Shown here one piece after another: positions 39,193-47,846 of a DNA stretch of 64,000 nt. The stretch comes from Acidobacteriaceae bacterium. Its GTDB lineage: Bacteria > Acidobacteriota > Terriglobia > Terriglobales > Acidobacteriaceae. Location of the stretch: positions 1 to 64,000 of the forward strand of contig PMHV01000005.1 of the NCBI GenBank assembly GCA_003156805.1, read 5' to 3'. Under the pieces are notes generated by a model. It made no database searches, was not told where the DNA came from, and was given only the letters and a program-made list of their open reading frames with translations. The position numbers were made by a program, and so were the translations under genes. Position 1 is the first letter of the stretch; each line of letters starts with the position of its first letter.

Positions 39193-41397
39193 ATGCGATC
39201 GGGCCGTGCCAAGTTCGCGCTTCTTTTCCTGTCGCTCAGCCTGGCGTGTGCGGTTCCGCAATTGCTGGCCAAGAAAAAAGACATAGGCGCTCCTGGCCAG
39301 AATGACCAGAAGCGCGCTTCCCATGCGCTCAATCGCCTGACCTTCGGCCCGCGCCCGGGCGACCTGCAGCAAGTCATGGCGATGGGCGTCGACAAATGGA
39401 TCGATCTGCAACTGCATCCCGACAAGATCAGCGATAGCGCGCTCGACGCGCGCCTGGAGCCGTTTCGCACCGCTCGCATGAGCACGCGGGAAATCGCAGA
39501 AGATTTTCCCGACCCGCAAGAGATCAAGGACGTGATGAACGGCAAGAAGCCGATGCCGTCGGATGCGGCGAAACGCGCGATTTTTCAGGTGCAGGTCGCG
39601 CGCCAGCAAGACAAGCAAGAGAAGAAGGAAAGCAACAAGGAGGCGAACGCGCGCGTTACCGCTTCGCCGGATAAAGCCTCCATCGCCTCGCCTGGGGATT
39701 CGATGATGATGATGCCGCCAGATGCGGCAGCCAACACCGCAGCAGCGGACAACTCCGCCGCGAACGCGGGCACGGCCACCAACGATTCCGCTATGAATAC
39801 AGCGCTGGCCGACGACAAGGCGATGGCGAACGTAGTCCCTCCGCCCAAGCCGACGCCCGAAGAAGAAGCCGAGGCTCGCCGCCGCGAGCAGCAACTCTAC
39901 GCCGACCTCGAGGTGCAGCAGTTGCCCAGCCTGCCTCCGGACCAGCGCTTCAAAAAGATTCTCAACATGTCCGTGGAGCAGAAAGTTGCATTCGCCGATT
40001 CTCTGCGCGGCGGCAAAGGGCAGGAGTTTCTCGAAGGCCTGGACGCCAAGCAGAAAGAAATTCTGCTGGCCATGAACAATCCGCCAGCGGTGGTTACGGA
40101 CGAACTGGCGCAAGCCAAGCTGCTGCGGGCCATCTACAGCGAGCGTCAACTCGAAGAAGTGATGACCGATTTCTGGTTCAACCACTTCAACGTGTTCGTG
40201 GGAAAGGGCGTGGAACGGCTGCTGCTCACCAGCTACGAGCGCGATGTCATCCATCCGCGCGCTCTGGGCAAGTTCGAAGACCTGCTGGTGGCTACGGCGA
40301 AGAGCCCCGCCATGCTTTTCTATCTCGACAACTGGCTTAGCGTCGGCCCGGATTCACCGCAGGCCCTGGGCATTCCTGCGCATCCCGGTCCGTACGGGCG
40401 CGGTTACCCTCGCGGGATGACTCGTCCCAATCAGGGCAGACGCAACGGCTTGAACGAAAACTACGGCCGTGAATTGCTGGAGTTGCACACCCTCAGCGTG
40501 AACGGCGGCTACTCGCAGCGCGATGTCACGGAAGTCGCGAAAGTCTTCACCGGCTGGACCATCGAAAAACCATATGAAGGCGGCGGTTTCAAATTTGAGC
40601 CGCGCACGCATGAGCCCGGCCCCAAATTCGTGCTCGGTCATCGCATCAAACCGAAGGGCGAGGGCGAAGGTCTGGAAGTGCTTCACCGGCTGGCAACCAG
40701 CCCGCAGACTGCGCATTTCATTTCGCTGAAGCTGGCCGAGCGCTTCGTTTCCGACGATCCGCCGCCAGCCCTTGTCGACCGCATGGCGAAAACTTTCTTG
40801 AAGAAAAAGGGCGACATTCGCGAGGTGCTCAGCACGCTCTTCCACTCGCCCGAGTTCTGGGCTGACGGCTCTTACCGCGCCAAAGTGAAAACTCCGCTCG
40901 AGTTCGTGGCGTCTGCCGTGCGCGCCACGGGCGCCGATGTAACCGAGGCATCGCAACTGGTGCGGCAACTCAATAATTTCGGTATGCCTCTGTATGGCGC
41001 GCAGCCGCCGACCGGCTACTCGATGAAAGCGGAGACATGGGTCAGTTCGTCGGCGCTGCTCAGCCGCATGAATTTTGCCCTCGCATTGAGCGCAGGAAAA
41101 GTAAAAGGCGTGAATGTCGCGGTGGCGCAATTATCCGGGAACGGGCCACCGGCCGATTCAGGGCAGGCTTTGTCTGAGATGGAGACCGTGCTGCTGGCAG
41201 GCGACGTTTCGAAGCAGACGCACGACTCGATCGCCGCGCAGATCGACTCTGCCGGAAAGCCGGCAGCGCCAAGCAATGGCATGCCGCAGAAGCAAGGCAA
41301 CAAGGCCGGCCGCAAGCCCGACGACGCAGCTCACCCTCCGGATGAGAGCACCATCGCGGGCCTGCTGCTGGGTTCGCCGGAGTTTCAGAAAAGATAG
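39193..41397 (+). CDS. DUF1800 secreted protein
   Basis: 734 residues with a signal peptide (MRSGRAKFALLFLSLSLACAVPQLLA). DUF1800 begins with ASHALNRLTFGPRPGDLQQVMAMGVDKWIDLQL. The core follows after an insert: QLEEVMTDFWFNHFNVF, LGKFEDLLVATAKSPAMLFYLDN, GLNENYGRELLELHTLSVNGGYSQRDVTEVAKVFTGWT, FHSPEFW. An insert of about 80 residues (155-235) is rich in Ala, Asn, Asp and Met (DSMMMMPPDAAANTAAADN), low in complexity and probably disordered. The function of DUF1800 is not established, but it is nearly always next to a DUF1501 gene as here (start 90 bp after the stop), so the two are thought to act together outside the cytoplasm. Confidence 0.93.
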   Translation: MRSGRAKFALLFLSLSLACAVPQLLAKKKDIGAPGQNDQKRASHALNRLTFGPRPGDLQQVMAMGVDKWIDLQLHPDKISDSALDARLEPFRTARMSTREIAEDFPDPQEIKDVMNGKKPMPSDAAKRAIFQVQVARQQDKQEKKESNKEANARVTASPDKASIASPGDSMMMMPPDAAANTAAADNSAANAGTATNDSAMNTALADDKAMANVVPPPKPTPEEEAEARRREQQLYADLEVQQLPSLPPDQRFKKILNMSVEQKVAFADSLRGGKGQEFLEGLDAKQKEILLAMNNPPAVVTDELAQAKLLRAIYSERQLEEVMTDFWFNHFNVFVGKGVERLLLTSYERDVIHPRALGKFEDLLVATAKSPAMLFYLDNWLSVGPDSPQALGIPAHPGPYGRGYPRGMTRPNQGRRNGLNENYGRELLELHTLSVNGGYSQRDVTEVAKVFTGWTIEKPYEGGGFKFEPRTHEPGPKFVLGHRIKPKGEGEGLEVLHRLATSPQTAHFISLKLAERFVSDDPPPALVDRMAKTFLKKKGDIREVLSTLFHSPEFWADGSYRAKVKTPLEFVASAVRATGADVTEASQLVRQLNNFGMPLYGAQPPTGYSMKAETWVSSSALLSRMNFALALSAGKVKGVNVAVAQLSGNGPPADSGQALSEMETVLLAGDVSKQTHDSIAAQIDSAGKPAAPSNGMPQKQGNKAGRKPDDAAHPPDESTIAGLLLGSPEFQKR

Positions 41398-41481
41398 CTG
41401 GGCTAGCTTCTAGCTACTTGCGTCCAGCCAAGACGATCCTGCGTATCGCGAAGTATCAGCTAGAAGCTAGCAGCCAGGAGC
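41398..41481. repeat. Inverted word-repeat pair before the DUF1501 gene
   Basis: Left arm 41398-41419 (CTGGGCTAGCTTCTAGCTACTT) and right arm 41451-41481 (reverse complement contains GGCTGCTAGCTTCTAGCTGATACTT). A hairpin of about 84 nt is possible. AGGAG at 41477-41481, six nt before the DUF1501 ATG, lies at the base of the stem, so the hairpin could affect translation of that gene. Confidence 0.65.
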
Positions 41482-41487
41482 TTTTTT

Positions 41488-42732
41488 ATGTCCATTACTC
41501 GCCGCGTTTTTCTTCGCAACAGCGGACTCGCCGTAGTAGGCACGGCCGCGGTGCCGAGCTTCCTCACTCGCGCCGCGTTTGGTGCGGTTCAGGGCGGCGC
41601 ATCCAATAAGCGACTGGTGGTGATCTTCCAGCGCGGAGCGGCCGACGGGCTGAACATCGTGGTGCCCCATGGCGAGCCGCAGTATTACGCAATGCGGCCC
41701 AGCATCAACATTCCGCGCAAGGCCGTGATTGATCTGAATGGCTTCTTCGGATTGCATCCGGCGCTCGAATCGTTTCAGCCTTTGTGGCAGCAGCGCCAGC
41801 TTGCCATCGTCCACGCGGCGGGATCGCCAGACACCACCCGCTCTCATTTCGACGCGCAGGATTTCATGGAATCGGGTACGCCCGGCGTAAAGGCCACCGA
41901 AGACGGATGGCTCAACCGCTCGCTTCGCGCTATGCCGGAGACCGCCGCGAATTCGGCGTTTCGCGCCATCGCCATGGGACCGTCGTTGCCCCGCATTCTG
42001 AGCGGTTCTCAACCCGCGGTTGCACTCAACAACATCAGCGATTTCGGCATCGGAGGGCGCAATCCCAAGGCTTCGCCGGTGGCCAGCACTTTCGAAGCCA
42101 TGTACGACAATTCGGTCGACACCGTGCTGCACGGCACCGGCGAAGAAACTTTCGACGCGGTGAAGATGCTGAAGGCCGCCGACCCGTCGAAGTACAAGCC
42201 CGCACCCGGCGCCGATTATCCCAAGGGACGCTTCGGCGACAGCCTGCGCCAACTGGCGCAGCTTATCAAGGCCAATCTCGGCGTGCAGGTTGCATTTGCC
42301 GATATCGGCGGCTGGGATCATCACGTCAACGAAGGTTCCACCGACGGCCAGATTGCCAATGTGCTGCGCGAGTTCTCGCAATCTCTAGCCGCTTTCTGGA
42401 CCGACCTCGGCGATCTCGGAGAAGATACGGTGGTGGTCACCATGTCCGAGTTCGGCCGCACCGCGCGCGAAAACGGCAATCGCGGCACCGACCACGGCCA
42501 CGCCAACGTAATGTTCGTCCTCGGCGGGCCGGTGAAAGGCGGTAAAGTTTACGGCCGCTGGCCGGGCCTCGATCAGTCGCAACTTTACGAAGGCCGCGAT
42601 CTGGCGTTGACCACGGATTTCCGCCAGGTGATCGGAGAAGCCGTCGCGCGCCACATGGGCAACAAGAATTTGAATGATGTGTTTCCGGGGTACGAGAATC
42701 AGCCTTCAAAGTTTTTGAGATTTCTTGGATAG
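41488..42732 (+). CDS. DUF1501 secreted protein (Tat signal)
   Basis: 414 residues. The N-terminus SITRRVFLRNSGLAVVGTAAVP is a twin-arginine (Tat) signal, so the protein is exported folded. DUF1501 core: LVVIFQRGAADGLNIVVPHGE, RPSINIPRKAVIDLNGFFGLHPALESF, SHFDAQDFMESGTPG, DIGGWDHHVNEG, VTMSEFGRTARENGNRGTDHGHANVMFVLGG. It resembles the alkaline-phosphatase/sulfatase superfamily (GWDxH, SEFGRT, GTDHGH metal-site motifs), so a metal-dependent hydrolase is likely, but activity is not known. Its partner DUF1800 lies upstream; AGGAG in the word-repeat is the ribosome-binding site. The 3' end overlaps the convergent DUF457 gene by 34 bp. Confidence 0.93.
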   Translation: MSITRRVFLRNSGLAVVGTAAVPSFLTRAAFGAVQGGASNKRLVVIFQRGAADGLNIVVPHGEPQYYAMRPSINIPRKAVIDLNGFFGLHPALESFQPLWQQRQLAIVHAAGSPDTTRSHFDAQDFMESGTPGVKATEDGWLNRSLRAMPETAANSAFRAIAMGPSLPRILSGSQPAVALNNISDFGIGGRNPKASPVASTFEAMYDNSVDTVLHGTGEETFDAVKMLKAADPSKYKPAPGADYPKGRFGDSLRQLAQLIKANLGVQVAFADIGGWDHHVNEGSTDGQIANVLREFSQSLAAFWTDLGDLGEDTVVVTMSEFGRTARENGNRGTDHGHANVMFVLGGPVKGGKVYGRWPGLDQSQLYEGRDLALTTDFRQVIGEAVARHMGNKNLNDVFPGYENQPSKFLRFLG

Positions 42733-43298: not shown

Positions 43299-43607
43299 CT
43301 AGATCTCAATCATCACGTCGCCATTCTCAATCTTCAGCGGATACACGGCAAGCTTCATGCTGGGATCCTGCGTGGCTTCGCCGGTCTTCGCGTCCCACTC
43401 CCAGCCATGCCACGGGCAGACAACTTTGCTACCCTCGATCATGCCTTGCCCCAACGGCCCGCCGCGATGCAGGCAGACATTGTCCATGGCGCTGTAGGCG
43501 CCGTTCACGTTGGCGACGCAGATGGTCTTCGCGCCGCAGGGAAATTCCTTGGCTTCGTCGGCGGCGGGGAGTTCGGATTCGGTGGTGAGCTTGGCGAAGT
43601 TGGGCAT
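43299..43607 (-). CDS. Rieske-type [2Fe-2S] ferredoxin
   Basis: 102 residues. The cluster motif is complete: Cys45-x-His47 (CLHRGG) and Cys64-xx-His67 (CPWHGW), with flanking GGPLGQG and the WDAKTGEA and YPLKIENGDVMIEI tail. It belongs with the small NirD/biphenyl-dioxygenase ferredoxin type, soluble and without a membrane helix. It carries electrons to or from an oxygenase or reductase, but no such partner is adjacent. It is in a minus-strand row with the isolated nuoB and a DUF457 membrane protein. Confidence 0.92.
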   Translation of the reverse strand: MPNFAKLTTESELPAADEAKEFPCGAKTICVANVNGAYSAMDNVCLHRGGPLGQGMIEGSKVVCPWHGWEWDAKTGEATQDPSMKLAVYPLKIENGDVMIEI

Positions 43608-43615
43608 TTAGGCCT

Positions 43616-43654
43616 TGCTGATGGCCGACAGCTGACGGCTGACAGCTACTTCGG
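43616..43654. repeat. Word-like intergenic repeat (CTGACAGCTGACGG type)
   Basis: TGATGGCCGACAGCTGACGGCTGACAGCTACTT holds three variants of the word (G/A)CAGCTGACGG in about 35 bp between the Rieske gene and nuoB, overlapping the last codons of nuoB. It is the short, unpaired version of the word-repeats seen elsewhere. Confidence 0.45.
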
Positions 43655-44206
43655 CTGCAGCGTCTGCGCGATCATGACCTGTTTCTTAAAATTCTCCACC
43701 ATGTTCGGGTCGAGGCGAACTTCGGTGGGCTTCTTGGCCAGGGTCATGGTGTCGATCTTGTCCTGCAGTTTGAGCAGCGCGTAGAAAAGATTCTCGGGGC
43801 GCGGCGGGCAGCCGGTAACGTAAACATCCACTGGTACGACCTTGTCCACGCCCTGCAACACGGCGTAAGTATTGAACGGCCCGCCCACTGAGGAACACGC
43901 GCCCATCGAGATCACCCACTTCGGGTCCGGCATTTGATCGTAGATGCGCTTCACCACCGGAGCCATCTTCAGCGTGACCGTGCCGGCAACGATCATCAGA
44001 TCGCTTTGCCGCGGGCTGGGACGAAACACTTCCGAACCGAAGCGCGCAATGTCGAAACGCGCCGTCGAAGAAGCGATCATTTCGATGGCGCAGCAGGCCA
44101 GGCCGAAAGTCATCGGCCAAACGGCAGACTTGCGCGCCCAGTTGAACACGTAGTCGACCGTGCTGATCATGAAATTCTTTTCGAACTTGTTTTGCAGCCA
44201 GCCCAT
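43646..44206 (-). CDS. nuoB: NADH-quinone oxidoreductase subunit B (NuoB), isolated
   Basis: 186 residues. The N2 cluster ligands are all present: Cys38-Cys39 (LACCAIEM), Cys104 ([10 protein letters not shown]) and Cys133 (GCPPRPENL). [21 protein letters not shown] and [28 protein letters not shown] are standard. NuoB holds the last iron-sulfur cluster, which passes electrons to quinone (here presumably menaquinone). Usually it is in a nuoA-N operon; here none of the other subunits is near, only a Rieske protein downstream. The start is the ATG at 44206, divergent from a membrane glycosyltransferase. Confidence 0.95.
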
Positions 44207-45599: not shown

Positions 45600-45974
45600 T
45601 TACTGTTTCTCGTCCAATTCAACCTTCAGCACATGAATCCGCTTGGCCTTGGCGTCGAGCACTCCCGAAATTCTCACCCTCTGGCCCTCGAAGCCATGCA
45701 CCAGATCCGGACGATCGAGCCAGAACACGTCCTGCCCCGAAGCCAGCACCAGCTCGCCTCCCAAATGCTCAATGCAATACACCGAGCAGGTGTTCGCAGT
45801 CCCGCCCATGGATTTGGATTTGAGCATCTCCTGATGAGACCGCGTCAGTGAATGAATATTCAGCGCGCACTGGCTGTCGGAAACTTCTCCGCGGAAGACC
45901 TTTGTACTCTGGCTGTATGCGGCGCCGGCCAATGCCAGAATCCCTGCCGCGCACCAGGTCGCGTTTCGATTCAT
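45600..45974 (-). CDS. Secreted protein of unknown function, last gene of the CuA-cytochrome operon
   Basis: 124 residues from the ATG at 45974, which has AAGGGAG five nt upstream. Signal peptide MNRNATWCAAGILALAGAAYSQ. The mature part, VFRGEVSDSQCALNIHSLTRSHQEMLKSKSMGGTANTCSVYCIEHLGGELVLASGQDVFWLD, is seen in many Acidobacteriota (inferred), usually with the three Cys. DSQCAxNxHSxT-H and CS-YCIE- might form a metal or disulfide site: two His and three Cys are near each other. It ends with a strand-rich OB-like half (VRISGVLDAKAKRIHVLKVEL). It is 18 bp from the CuA gene on the same strand. Confidence 0.75.
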   Translation of the reverse strand: MNRNATWCAAGILALAGAAYSQSTKVFRGEVSDSQCALNIHSLTRSHQEMLKSKSMGGTANTCSVYCIEHLGGELVLASGQDVFWLDRPDLVHGFEGQRVRISGVLDAKAKRIHVLKVELDEKQ

Positions 45975-45992
45975 AACCACTCCCTTTAGTCC

Positions 45993-46421
45993 TCAAGGCA
46001 GCACGGTGAACTTCATGTGCATGCCTTCGTGGTCTTCACTGCAAATCACCGTGCAGACCACTTCGTACTCGCCCGGCTCAGCCGGAGCCGTGAGTTGGAA
46101 TTCCTGTCTGCCCGGCTTGAACAGCAGGTTCCAGCCTTCCACCTTGGTCCGATCCCTGGCCCGCAGCAGGGTGAAGCCGTGGATCGATCCATCCCGATTC
46201 CAGGTTTTGCCCCGGCGCGCCGTCACTCGCAGAAGCACTTGCTCTCCAGCCTTGACGGTGATCTCCGGGGTGCGTTCTCCGGCGATCTTGTAGCGGCTGT
46301 CGCTGTCCGCCAGCAGTTCGATGACATGCACCTGCGCATTGGCATGAGGTATGCCGGCTAACAGAGCGCCCGACACGGCGATTACAACAAGAGTACGACA
46401 AAACCTCGCTGATCTCGTCAT
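45993..46421 (-). CDS. Periplasmic CuA-type cupredoxin (COX2-like)
   Basis: 142 residues: signal peptide (to about residue 29, HANA-Q) and one cupredoxin domain. The CuA ligands of cytochrome oxidase subunit II and nitrous oxide reductase are all present in order and spacing: His81 (SIHGF), then Cys123-x3-Cys127-x3-His131-x2-Met134 (CTVICSEDHEGM). There is no membrane anchor or other COX2 part, so this is a soluble dinuclear-copper electron carrier or copper-binding protein. It is in a row with a cytochrome c (37 bp upstream) and an outer-membrane barrel. The order suggests delivery of electrons or copper in the periplasm, but no terminal oxidase lies nearby. Confidence 0.88.
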   Translation of the reverse strand: MTRSARFCRTLVVIAVSGALLAGIPHANAQVHVIELLADSDSRYKIAGERTPEITVKAGEQVLLRVTARRGKTWNRDGSIHGFTLLRARDRTKVEGWNLLFKPGRQEFQLTAPAEPGEYEVVCTVICSEDHEGMHMKFTVLP

Positions 46422-46458
46422 CAGTTATCTTTTATCTTCGGGGTTGTTATTTCCGGGG

Positions 46459-46803
46459 TTACTGCGTCATATAGAAGAGCACCAGGCGCATGTCTTCGTC
46501 GGTAATCGTGGCCCGCACCCGCATGTGCCGCAGAACTGTCGCCATCATGCGCGGAGGAAATTTCCGTGGAGCGGCATGACAACGGCCGCAGTTGGCGCGA
46601 TAGCGCTGCTCGCCCTGCACGCGCATGGCGTCCGCGTCGTAGCTGGGAACGACCGGGGAACTGGTTGCATCCTTCTTGCCGGAGGGCCCTGCGGCCTGAA
46701 CCACCGAGCCCTGGATCAAGGAAAGCTGGGTTAACGGAGTATCGACCAATGAGCCGAGCGCGAGCGCGCAGACCAAAACTGCGATTCTCATTTTCATCTT
46801 CAT
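46459..46803 (-). CDS. Small periplasmic c-type cytochrome
   Basis: 114 residues from the ATG at 46803 (MKMKMRIAVLVCALALG), which overlaps the stop of the barrel gene (ATGA), so it is translationally coupled. A heme-binding CGRCH is at 72-76 and possible axial Met residues at 86/87 or 94; the closing TITDEDMRLVLFYMT fits a class I mono-heme fold. A 34-residue linker between the signal peptide and the domain is disordered (GPSGKKDATSSPVVPS). It is exported and should be matured by a cytochrome c maturation system. The neighbours are the CuA protein and a barrel, suggesting a shared electron-transfer task. Confidence 0.88.
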   Translation of the reverse strand: MKMKMRIAVLVCALALGSLVDTPLTQLSLIQGSVVQAAGPSGKKDATSSPVVPSYDADAMRVQGEQRYRANCGRCHAAPRKFPPRMMATVLRHMRVRATITDEDMRLVLFYMTQ

Positions 46804-47846
46804 TGCGCGCGCCCCAGCGGGATCAGGAACCGGTAGGCAATTCCTACGGTCCAAAGATTGAGATTTCCGGCCGAACTGAATTGCCGTCCGTAACTGGCTA
46901 CCGCTTTAAGCCCGTCCTTCAAGTAATAGTTCAGCCCGAATTCACCTTCGCGGGTGCTCGCAGGCTGCAGTCCAAGGGCCGCGGCCTCATCTGCGCCGAT
47001 CGAGCCGCTGAAGAATTGCTCCGCCCGCCCCGCGAATTCGGTGTGGCGCATCGCCTTCTGCCAGAACCGGACTTGGCTCAAGCGGTAGGCGCCGTCGATC
47101 CAGTATCCGCTCCCCTGGTTCGACCGGGCATACTCGGAGTGCACGTTGAGCGGAAGCCGCGCCGGTTGCCACGCAAAATGAAATCCAAAAGCGTTCGAAC
47201 GCTCGTCCTGCAACAGCTTCTGCCAGGAAGCACCCACCTCAACCCGCGGACCCGGCAGAAAGACGCCGATGCGCCCGCCGACGTTGCGATCCGATTGCAG
47301 GTTGTTGTGGTCTGTGCTCACTGCCGAAACATAGACCGCATAGTTCAGGTTGGCCTTGGTACCGGCGGCGACCGGGAATCCGCCGCGCAGCATCATGCCG
47401 TCGCTCGATTCGGCGGAGAGCGGCAAGATTAGAGGATCCTGTTGCAAGCTCCGGATCCAGATGGGATACAAGCGCTCGTTGAAGATTCCAAACGGCGTGA
47501 GAAACCGTCCCAAGGTGACGGTAACGTATGGGTTGGCGATGTAGTCGGCTTGCAGATAATCGAGATTCTTGCTCACCTCGCCGCCGTAAGGGCCGCCACC
47601 GGCAGGACGCTGAAACGCTCCTTCGCACTCCATTCTCCCTTCCACCAGCCACCGGTCGCCCAGCGGCAGCAGAAGCACAGGATTGATCTGTTCATCAATC
47701 TGGTTTTGCCCGGCGGTGACAAAGTTGAAATAGCCGGCAGTTCCGGTAAGAATGGGGACTGGCTTCTCCGTATCCGGCGACTGAGCGGCCACCAGACCCA
47801 GCATGAAGCCTAAAACGCATAAAAGAACGCATAACCTTGCCGGCAT
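46800..47846 (-). CDS. Outer-membrane beta-barrel protein (porin-like)
   Basis: 348 residues from the ATG at 47846 (MPARLCVLLCVLGFML), signal peptide to about 22. Alternating hydrophobic strands with aromatic girdles fill the mature part (INPVLLLPLGDRWLVEGRMECEG, YIANPYVTVTLGRFLTPFG, GTKANLNYAVYVSAVS, VEVGASWQKLL, AFGFHFAWQ, LNVHSEYARS, EFGLNYYLKDGLKAVASYGRQF), and the last residues LWTVGIAYRFLIPLG fit a barrel-closing strand. It looks like a phosphate-selective or OprO-type porin in style, e.g. FGIFNERLYPIW. A 23-residue extension is in frame upstream. As first gene of the operon it has AGAGGA upstream. It may hold or feed the cytochrome and CuA protein encoded after it. Confidence 0.78.
   Translation of the reverse strand: MPARLCVLLCVLGFMLGLVAAQSPDTEKPVPILTGTAGYFNFVTAGQNQIDEQINPVLLLPLGDRWLVEGRMECEGAFQRPAGGGPYGGEVSKNLDYLQADYIANPYVTVTLGRFLTPFGIFNERLYPIWIRSLQQDPLILPLSAESSDGMMLRGGFPVAAGTKANLNYAVYVSAVSTDHNNLQSDRNVGGRIGVFLPGPRVEVGASWQKLLQDERSNAFGFHFAWQPARLPLNVHSEYARSNQGSGYWIDGAYRLSQVRFWQKAMRHTEFAGRAEQFFSGSIGADEAAALGLQPASTREGEFGLNYYLKDGLKAVASYGRQFSSAGNLNLWTVGIAYRFLIPLGRAQ

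What the first reader, a model, noticed from the sequence alone, without database searches (positions are those of the whole stretch)
45600..47846. Barrel - cytochrome c - CuA protein - secreted protein operon
Four exported proteins are coded in a row, the first two coupled by ATGA. The third has a complete CuA ligand set (His81, Cys123, Cys127, His131, Met134) but no COX2 anchor or oxidase nearby; the second is a mono-heme cytochrome. An outer-membrane barrel plus heme and dinuclear copper carriers looks like a periplasm-to-surface redox or copper-handling unit that I cannot match to a described system.
Basis: partly seen in the sequence, partly recalled or inferred. Interest (0 to 1): 0.62.

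Follow-up and report, generated by a model that had tools for sequence, protein, structure and literature searches.

The report
Split porin-cytochrome with copper electron carrier
Soil and peat Acidobacteria carry a conserved four-gene set for an outer-membrane pore, a tiny one-heme protein, a copper electron carrier and a small secreted helper; it looks like a two-piece version of the single-protein gate that iron-oxidizing bacteria use to move electrons through their outer membrane.

Summary
On the minus strand, 47846 to 45600, lie a barrel (348 aa), a one-heme cytochrome c overlapping it by ATGA, a cupredoxin with all five CuA ligands, and a secreted protein. It is no chance row: 55 of 59 named public loci found with the cytochrome match all four families, all 55 in this order on one strand, and the flanks differ between genera. 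The ligands are invariant in 18 of 18 aligned relatives.
The barrel models as a 16-strand porin; OprO and OprP rank first by VIA-align, tied with other porins. A distant acidobacterial class encodes one protein whose front matches the cytochrome and back the barrel. That is the plan of Cyc2 and Cyt572, outer-membrane iron oxidases, here in two genes. The Cyc2 signature motif is absent, so it is not Cyc2.
Best reading: a split porin-cytochrome passing electrons across the outer membrane, with the CuA protein as periplasmic partner. Substrate and direction (Fe(II) oxidation, Fe(III) or humic reduction) are not shown. New variant of a known kind.

The parts
46800..47846 (-). Outer-membrane barrel, 348 aa with signal peptide; 16 predicted strands; conserved loop between strands 5 and 6 (about residues 114-138)
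   Evidence: ORF; AF2 model pLDDT 75.4, pTM 0.69, 16 strands (residues 120-136 have pLDDT under 50); VIA-align first rows OprO 4rjw Z 24.4 and OprP 2o4v Z 24.3, tied with other porins; Foldseek's own first rows are OmpU, with OprP at rank 25; alignment A1, 19 sequences, 44-70% identity to the window
46459..46803 (-). One-heme cytochrome c, 114 aa; CGRCH at residues 72-76; invariant Met94 as candidate distal heme ligand (inferred)
   Evidence: 35-row alignment: R74, C75, H76, R92, H93, M94, R95 and R97 in all rows, C72 in 34, the other row being truncated; starts inside the barrel stop (ATGA)
45993..46421 (-). CuA-like cupredoxin, 142 aa with signal peptide; ligands His81, Cys123, Cys127, His131, Met134
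   Evidence: all five invariant in 18 of 18, 45-46 of 47 in a wider table with a wrong-frame row; profile A4 finds COX2/CuA chains of the PDB at E 0.0009-0.009; NosZ and CoxB models far below cut-off
45600..45980 (-). Secreted protein, DUF5818-like, predicted OB-like fold with conserved C38/H43/H49/M52/C65/C69; GTG start at 45980 or ATG at 45974
   Evidence: conserved positions; DUF5818 at E 0.01 or better in 15 of 15 relatives, the window's own match (25.4 bits) under the cut-off of 27; model m06c2cdb56414; no significant PDB match

Best explanation
A two-gene porin-cytochrome with a dedicated copper carrier. The barrel (a 16-strand porin by prediction) sits in the outer membrane. The tiny one-heme cytochrome binds it, probably plugging its mouth or lumen (inferred from the fused relatives and from the plug model for Cyc2), so that one electron at a time crosses the outer membrane. 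The CuA cupredoxin takes electrons from, or gives them to, the heme in the periplasm and exchanges them with the respiratory chain (inferred); the genome has three COX2 matches. The fourth protein, found in the loci examined only where this CuA type is present, probably serves the CuA protein, for example in copper loading (inferred). The likeliest use is exchange with iron or humic substances outside the cell; Fe(II) oxidation feeding an oxidase is slightly favoured over Fe(III) or humic reduction.
For: Gene order and strand conserved in 55 of 59 loci; pairwise distances of the four families correlate over 55 loci (rho 0.54-0.64, permutation maximum 0.20). Ligands invariant in 18 of 18; heme motif and Met94 conserved. 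Single-chain fusions in another class: cytochrome to fusion N-terminus Prob 97.4, E 1.3e-11, 36% identity over 53 columns; barrel to fusion residues 128-409 Prob 96.3, E 1.7e-9. Barrel and cytochrome recur together in 12 of 12 examined loci of other genera of the family (12 of 24 such genomes with the cytochrome, chosen by cytochrome hit; in L171 an inserted ORF parts them); in 5 of the 12 another C-x3-C-x3-H-x2-M cupredoxin and a second heme-c motif follow directly. 16 strands, OprO/OprP first by VIA-align, the templates reported for Cyc2 (PMC8406198, passages). In 3 of 4 widely fetched loci of one genus (g68) the set lies near ctaA and ctaB; the rus operon of Acidithiobacillus also joins cyc2, copper proteins, cox and cta genes (PMC10654088, passages). 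Own genome: three COX2 matches, no MtrB/PioB.
Against: No electron transfer, copper or heme binding was measured. The Cyc2 signature motif is found in 0 of 35 cytochromes. Gene order is reversed relative to the fusion. In 15 loci with standalone porins related to the fusion, no heme-c ORF was found within about 1.5 kb (0 of 15, with a composition filter that may lose some), so the barrel superfamily includes ordinary porins. OprO/OprP are tied with general porins within 1 Z, and Foldseek puts OmpU first. The barrel model is poor in the conserved loop. Cta neighbours were seen in one genus, and no oxidase structural gene was recognised by eye further upstream there. 23 of 37 genomes of the genus lack the set, so it is an accessory function. 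Cyc2 carriers are mostly lithotrophs while cultivated Acidobacteriaceae are heterotrophs (recalled).
Confidence: 0.55

Rival explanations
1. Copper-handling unit: the barrel passes copper, the cupredoxin and secreted protein bind or deliver it, and the cytochrome sets its redox state.
For: Two proteins with conserved Cys/His/Met sets; a porin in front.
Against: No pump, multicopper oxidase or CopC-like gene among nine flanking genes; 7 of 12 examined barrel+cytochrome pairs of other genera have no C-x3-C-x3-H-x2-M protein within 1.5 kb behind them, though L184 and three similar loci have a secreted fn3-like gene nearby, one with a faint cupredoxin match; a CuA ligand set is an electron-transfer site in COX2 and NosZ (established knowledge).
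Confidence: 0.12
2. Ordinary porin co-transcribed with a periplasmic electron chain: the cytochrome and CuA protein pass electrons between periplasmic enzymes and a terminal oxidase, and the barrel only admits a substrate.
For: Standalone porins of this superfamily without cytochrome neighbour exist (15 of 15 examined); ctaA/ctaB neighbours in one genus; more distant CuA homologues sit with FeS and NrfD-like genes.
Against: Barrel and cytochrome persist together where the CuA gene is missing, and are one chain in another class. A four-base overlap with the barrel stop is the nearest cytochrome start in 38 of 49 parsed junctions.
Confidence: 0.25
3. Porin-cytochrome run outward: Fe(III), humic substances or another surface acceptor is reduced during oxygen limitation, electrons flowing CuA to heme to surface. 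A directional version of the best explanation, so the two odds overlap.
For: Acidobacterium capsulatum and Acidicapsa type strains reduce ferric iron under oxygen limitation (PMC8790237, passages); the own genome has no MtrB/PioB; reverse use of Cyc2/rusticyanin is proposed for Acidithiobacillus in the same review.
Against: CuA and one-heme carriers usually have high potentials (recalled), better suited to oxidation or to Fe(III) at low pH; whether the named iron reducers carry the genes was not tested.
Confidence: 0.25

Closest known systems
Cyc2 (fused cytochrome-porin Fe(II) oxidase)
   Same: One CXXCH, short conserved cytochrome domain, 16-strand porin with OprO/OprP among best matches (PMC8406198, passages); copper proteins (rusticyanin, Cup) as periplasmic partners in Acidithiobacillus (PMC10654088, passages)
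   Different: Two separate genes, barrel first; no P-x-F-A-R-[QK]-[TY] motif (0 of 35); CuA-type ligands instead of type 1 copper; activity unknown
Cyt572 of Leptospirillum
   Same: One-heme N-terminal domain plus 16-strand barrel; homologues reported in Acidobacteria (PMC10654088 section 7, read)
   Different: Fused and larger; its partner genes are reported not to be clustered; no Cyt572 sequence was at hand, so homology was not tested
MtrAB/MtoAB/PioABC porin-cytochrome conduits
   Same: Barrel plus cytochrome plus small periplasmic carrier
   Different: One heme instead of about ten, 16 strands instead of about 26; but distant relatives of the CuA protein do sit between an MtrB/PioB barrel and FeS/NrfD-like genes (L081, L087)
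CuA domains of COX2 and NosZ; PmoD
   Same: Ligand set and spacing; weak profile matches to COX2 and NosZ
   Different: Stand-alone exported protein without oxidase or NosZ catalytic domain; PmoD known here only from a search listing (PMC6189053)

Membership tests
Cyc2 | Single-chain N-terminal cytochrome fused to porin | tested here: not met
   Two genes with ATGA overlap
Cyc2 | AXPXFAR[QK][TY] motif upstream of CXXCH | tested here: not met
   P.FAR[QK][TY] in 0 of 35 cytochromes, 0 of 16 further proteins, 0 of 5 fusions
Cyc2 | 16-strand porin | tested here: met
   AF2 model, 16 strands; OprO/OprP first but tied
Cyc2 | Single CXXCH | tested here: met
   One CGRCH
Cyc2 | Fe(II) oxidation | not testable with these tools
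   Needs expressed protein
Cyt572 | Sequence homology to Leptospirillum Cyt572 | not tested
   No Cyt572 sequence fetched
CuA site proteins | His plus C-x3-C-x3-H-x2-M | tested here: met
   18 of 18
CuA site proteins | Dinuclear mixed-valence copper (EPR) | not testable with these tools
   Needs protein
Cytochrome oxidase subunit II | Family model over cut-off and oxidase subunit I partner gene | tested here: not met
   CoxB 19 bits against 147.7; no COX1 among nine flanking genes scanned
Cytochrome oxidase subunit II | Membrane anchor | tested here: inconclusive
   One N-terminal hydrophobic segment ending ANA-Q, read by eye as a cleaved signal; no predictor run
PcoAB/CopAB copper resistance | Multicopper oxidase beside the barrel | tested here: not met
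   None among the four operon genes and nine flanking genes
MtrAB-type conduit | Multiheme cytochrome and MtrB/PioB barrel | tested here: not met
   No MtrB_PioB match in own genome; cytochrome has one heme motif

The most novel reading that the evidence does not exclude
A third lineage of one-heme outer-membrane electron gates, separate from Cyc2 and possibly from Cyt572, built as two genes and wired to a CuA carrier, that gives soil and peat Acidobacteria a so far unrecognised route for exchanging electrons with iron or humics; the published account of SbA1-7 reports dissimilatory iron genes as absent but for one putative metal reductase in SbA2, while SbA1 carries the pair.
Probability: 0.4. 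Interest if true: 0.8.

Novelty: new variant of a known kind. Interest (0 to 1): 0.66.

Why it matters
Some cultivated Acidobacteria reduce ferric iron (PMC8790237, passages), and the window's genome has no MtrB/PioB barrel. A conserved porin plus one-heme plus CuA set would be a testable candidate for iron or humic redox chemistry in this phylum of acidic soils and peat, would give a split system in which the heme domain and pore of a Cyc2-like gate can be studied apart, and would add a stand-alone CuA electron carrier. It would also be a marker that a search for the Cyc2 motif misses.

Tried and rejected
Pfam and NCBIfam gave only weak, below-cut-off matches for the window's four proteins. 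A stand-alone oxidase subunit II was rejected because the CoxB model matches far under cut-off and no subunit I was found near. Cyc2 in the strict sense was rejected on the motif and the missing fusion. Foldseek with the secreted protein's model gave nothing significant, best E 0.057; weak OB-fold rows (among them CcmE) were not used. The gene opposite the operon in the ctaA/ctaB loci was first guessed to be SCO; Pfam found nothing in the copy tested, so the guess was dropped. A PDB search with the cytochrome profile gave only general cytochromes. I looked for cox genes further along the ctaA loci and recognised none by eye.

Paper searches, ten in all: (1 paper; 32, 12 listed; 0; 1; 1; 127, 12 listed; 6; 1; 4), 91 (20, 10 listed). 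None of the listings or passages I saw describes this operon; most listed papers were not opened. Passages only were seen of PMC8406198, PMC12442345, PMC6018796, PMC8790237, PMC10734462 and PMC5566968; of PMC10654088 passages and section 7. The library holds open-licence papers only.

Rows and limits: the 47-row CuA table holds one wrong-frame row (L070), one row with Arg at Cys123 (L063) and one copy in L083 with Gln at Met134; the 37-row barrel table holds fragments. One search printed wrong segments for the cytochrome in five loci; one search recounted with the best segment and gave 55 of 55 in order. The barrel lies in two frames in L109, L112 and L113. One search parsed 49 of 58 junctions. 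Of the 36 of 399 class genomes with a CuA match, I read 25 as four-gene sets; of the other 11, 7 showed FeS and NrfD-like genes beside the CuA gene, one (G143) cytochrome+CuA, one (G426) a multiheme gene, and two (G072, G175) were not examined. The correlation of distances also reflects shared descent. Within the genus the flanks are conserved too; unlike flanks are seen between genera.

Full report
What is there. On the minus strand the window encodes, in order, a 348-aa barrel (47846-46800), a 114-aa cytochrome with one CGRCH (46803-46459), a 142-aa cupredoxin (46421-45993) and a 126-aa secreted protein (45980-45600). The barrel stop and cytochrome start share ATGA; the later gaps are 37 and 12 bases. 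Flanking genes are a PMT_2 family protein and a DUF4097 protein, both on the other strand.

Conservation. In the 37 genomes of the genus searched (the window's own included) the CuA gene is in 13, the barrel in 13, both in 12; the two exceptions lie at contig edges, and 23 genomes have neither. Across the class, 36 of 399 genomes have a CuA homologue at E 1e-10 or better. A scan of named genomes with the cytochrome profile gave 59 loci; 55 match all four families in the same order on one strand, two match barrel and cytochrome only (L112 from Acidobacteriaceae bacterium SbA1, which ends at a contig end and has its barrel in two frames, and L147), one (L091) begins at a contig end inside the cytochrome, and one (Sphingopyxis, L149) is a false hit. 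Record titles name Candidatus Sulfotelmatobacter, Acidiferrales, gp1 and gp2 Acidobacteria among others; one titled Gammaproteobacteria (L136) is 99.85% identical to L137 of an acidobacterium over 5382 bases and is probably misbinned. Flanks are shared within the genus but differ between genera, so the set is a unit and not a by-product of general synteny. Identity to the window's proteins in the sets I aligned runs from about 33% to 79%.

Cofactor sites. In 18 aligned CuA homologues, including those of other gene settings, His81, Cys123, Cys127, His131 and Met134 never vary. In a wider 47-row table they hold in 45 or 46 rows, the exceptions being a wrong-frame row, one Arg at Cys123 and one Gln at Met134 in a duplicated copy. 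In 35 cytochrome rows Cys75, His76, Arg92, His93, Met94, Arg95 and Arg97 never vary and Cys72 is missing only in a truncated row; Met94 aligns with an invariant Met of the fused proteins and is my candidate for the distal heme ligand (inferred). A profile of the CuA family reaches COX2 and CuA chains of the PDB at E 0.0009 to 0.009.

The barrel. AlphaFold2 on 19 relatives gives 16 strands, pLDDT 75.4, pTM 0.69, with low confidence in the conserved loop after strand 5. VIA-align puts OprO (Z 24.4, 2.8 A over 280 residues, 16% identity) and OprP (Z 24.3) first, but general porins follow within 1 Z, so this is a tie; Foldseek's own ranking starts with OmpU and has OprP at rank 25. Keffer et al. 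(PMC8406198, passages read) report a 16-strand porin with OprO/OprP as structural matches for Cyc2.

The fusion. In a distant class of the phylum one gene encodes cytochrome and barrel together: six near-full-length matches in 5 of 119 genomes, five of them aligned (407-413 aa). The cytochrome profile matches its front (Prob 97.4, E 1.3e-11) and the barrel profile its back (Prob 96.3, E 1.7e-9). Two proteins made as one chain elsewhere usually work together. The other matches in that class cover the porin part only; in the 15 such loci I examined, no heme-c ORF was found within about 1.5 kb, which is evidence that the barrel superfamily also holds ordinary porins.

The pair without this CuA type. 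The cytochrome profile also matches 24 genomes of other genera of the family besides G192, which has the four-gene set. In the 12 of these 24 whose loci I fetched, the barrel lies with the cytochrome in all 12; in L171 a 468-aa ORF with helix-turn-helix matches (transposase-like by eye) parts them. In 5 of the 12 (L170, L171, L177, L184, L185) a different short cupredoxin with C-x3-C-x3-H-x2-M and then a second heme-c motif follow directly; in 7 nothing of that motif lies within 1.5 kb. In another acidobacterial family (L180, L181; L179 is cut by a contig end) the pair is followed by a CuA homologue and, further on, an AhpC-like gene. The secreted protein's profile gave no hit in these 17 loci (L170-L186), so in what I examined it goes with this CuA type.

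How it works, most likely. Shown: gene set, conservation, ligand residues, barrel fold by model, homology to a fusion. Inferred: the cytochrome sits in or at the barrel and carries electrons through the outer membrane; the CuA protein shuttles them in the periplasm; the fourth protein serves the CuA protein. He et al. (PMC5566968, passages) cite the view that the Cyc2 cytochrome domain forms a plug in its barrel. The own genome has three COX2 matches and no MtrB/PioB. In 3 of 4 widely fetched loci of one genus (L075, L077, L090, not L085) the set lies near ctaA and ctaB, a few genes away at most, which recalls the rus operon, where cyc2 and copper proteins lie with cox and cta genes (PMC10654088, passages); no oxidase structural gene was recognised by eye further upstream in two of these loci. 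Direction and substrate stay open: Fe(II) oxidation by analogy, or reduction, since some cultivated acidobacteria reduce ferric iron at low oxygen (PMC8790237, passages).

Against it. No function was measured. The Cyc2 motif was found in 0 of 35 cytochromes and 0 of 5 fusions. The gene order is the reverse of the fusion. The set is absent from 23 of 37 genomes of the genus. Cta neighbours were seen in one genus only. The correlated distances partly reflect common descent.

Known or new. It is not Cyc2 (two tested features not met) and not oxidase subunit II. Membership in Cyt572 could not be tested; a paper reports Cyt572 homologues in Acidobacteria (PMC10654088 section 7, read), so the fused relatives may belong there. 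The ten paper searches named in Tried and rejected showed me no description of the operon. A paper on SbA1-7 states that genes for dissimilatory iron metabolism are absent but for one putative metal reductase in SbA2 (PMC6018796, passages), while the SbA1 record carries the barrel (in two frames) and the cytochrome (L112). I file it as a new variant of the porin-cytochrome kind.

Noticed in passing
L081, L087 (also L083, L088, L028, L089, L074, L029): More distant CuA homologues sit directly before FeS and NrfD-like genes, and in L081 and L087 directly after a multiheme cytochrome and an MtrB/PioB-type barrel: a CuA protein built into an MtrAB-like conduit cluster.
   Followed up: partly
L187-L191 (L183:6347-7576): Single-chain one-heme cytochrome fused to a Porin_4/Porin_O_P-type barrel in another acidobacterial class, without the Cyc2 motif; FeS and NrfD-like genes lie upstream in L183.
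   Followed up: partly
L170, L171, L177, L184, L185: A different short cupredoxin with C-x3-CG-x2-HG-x-M followed by a second heme-c protein behind the barrel+cytochrome pair.
   Followed up: partly
L171:6708-8114: A transposase-like ORF (helix-turn-helix matches only) between a shortened barrel and the cytochrome.
   Followed up: partly
window 43299-44206: A NuoB-like gene and a Rieske ferredoxin gene in a row; the pair is also near the operon in some relatives.
   Followed up: no
window 39193-42732: DUF1800 and DUF1501 gene pair.
   Followed up: no
L136: A contig titled Gammaproteobacteria is 99.85% identical over 5382 bases to L137 of an acidobacterium; probably misbinned.
   Followed up: partly
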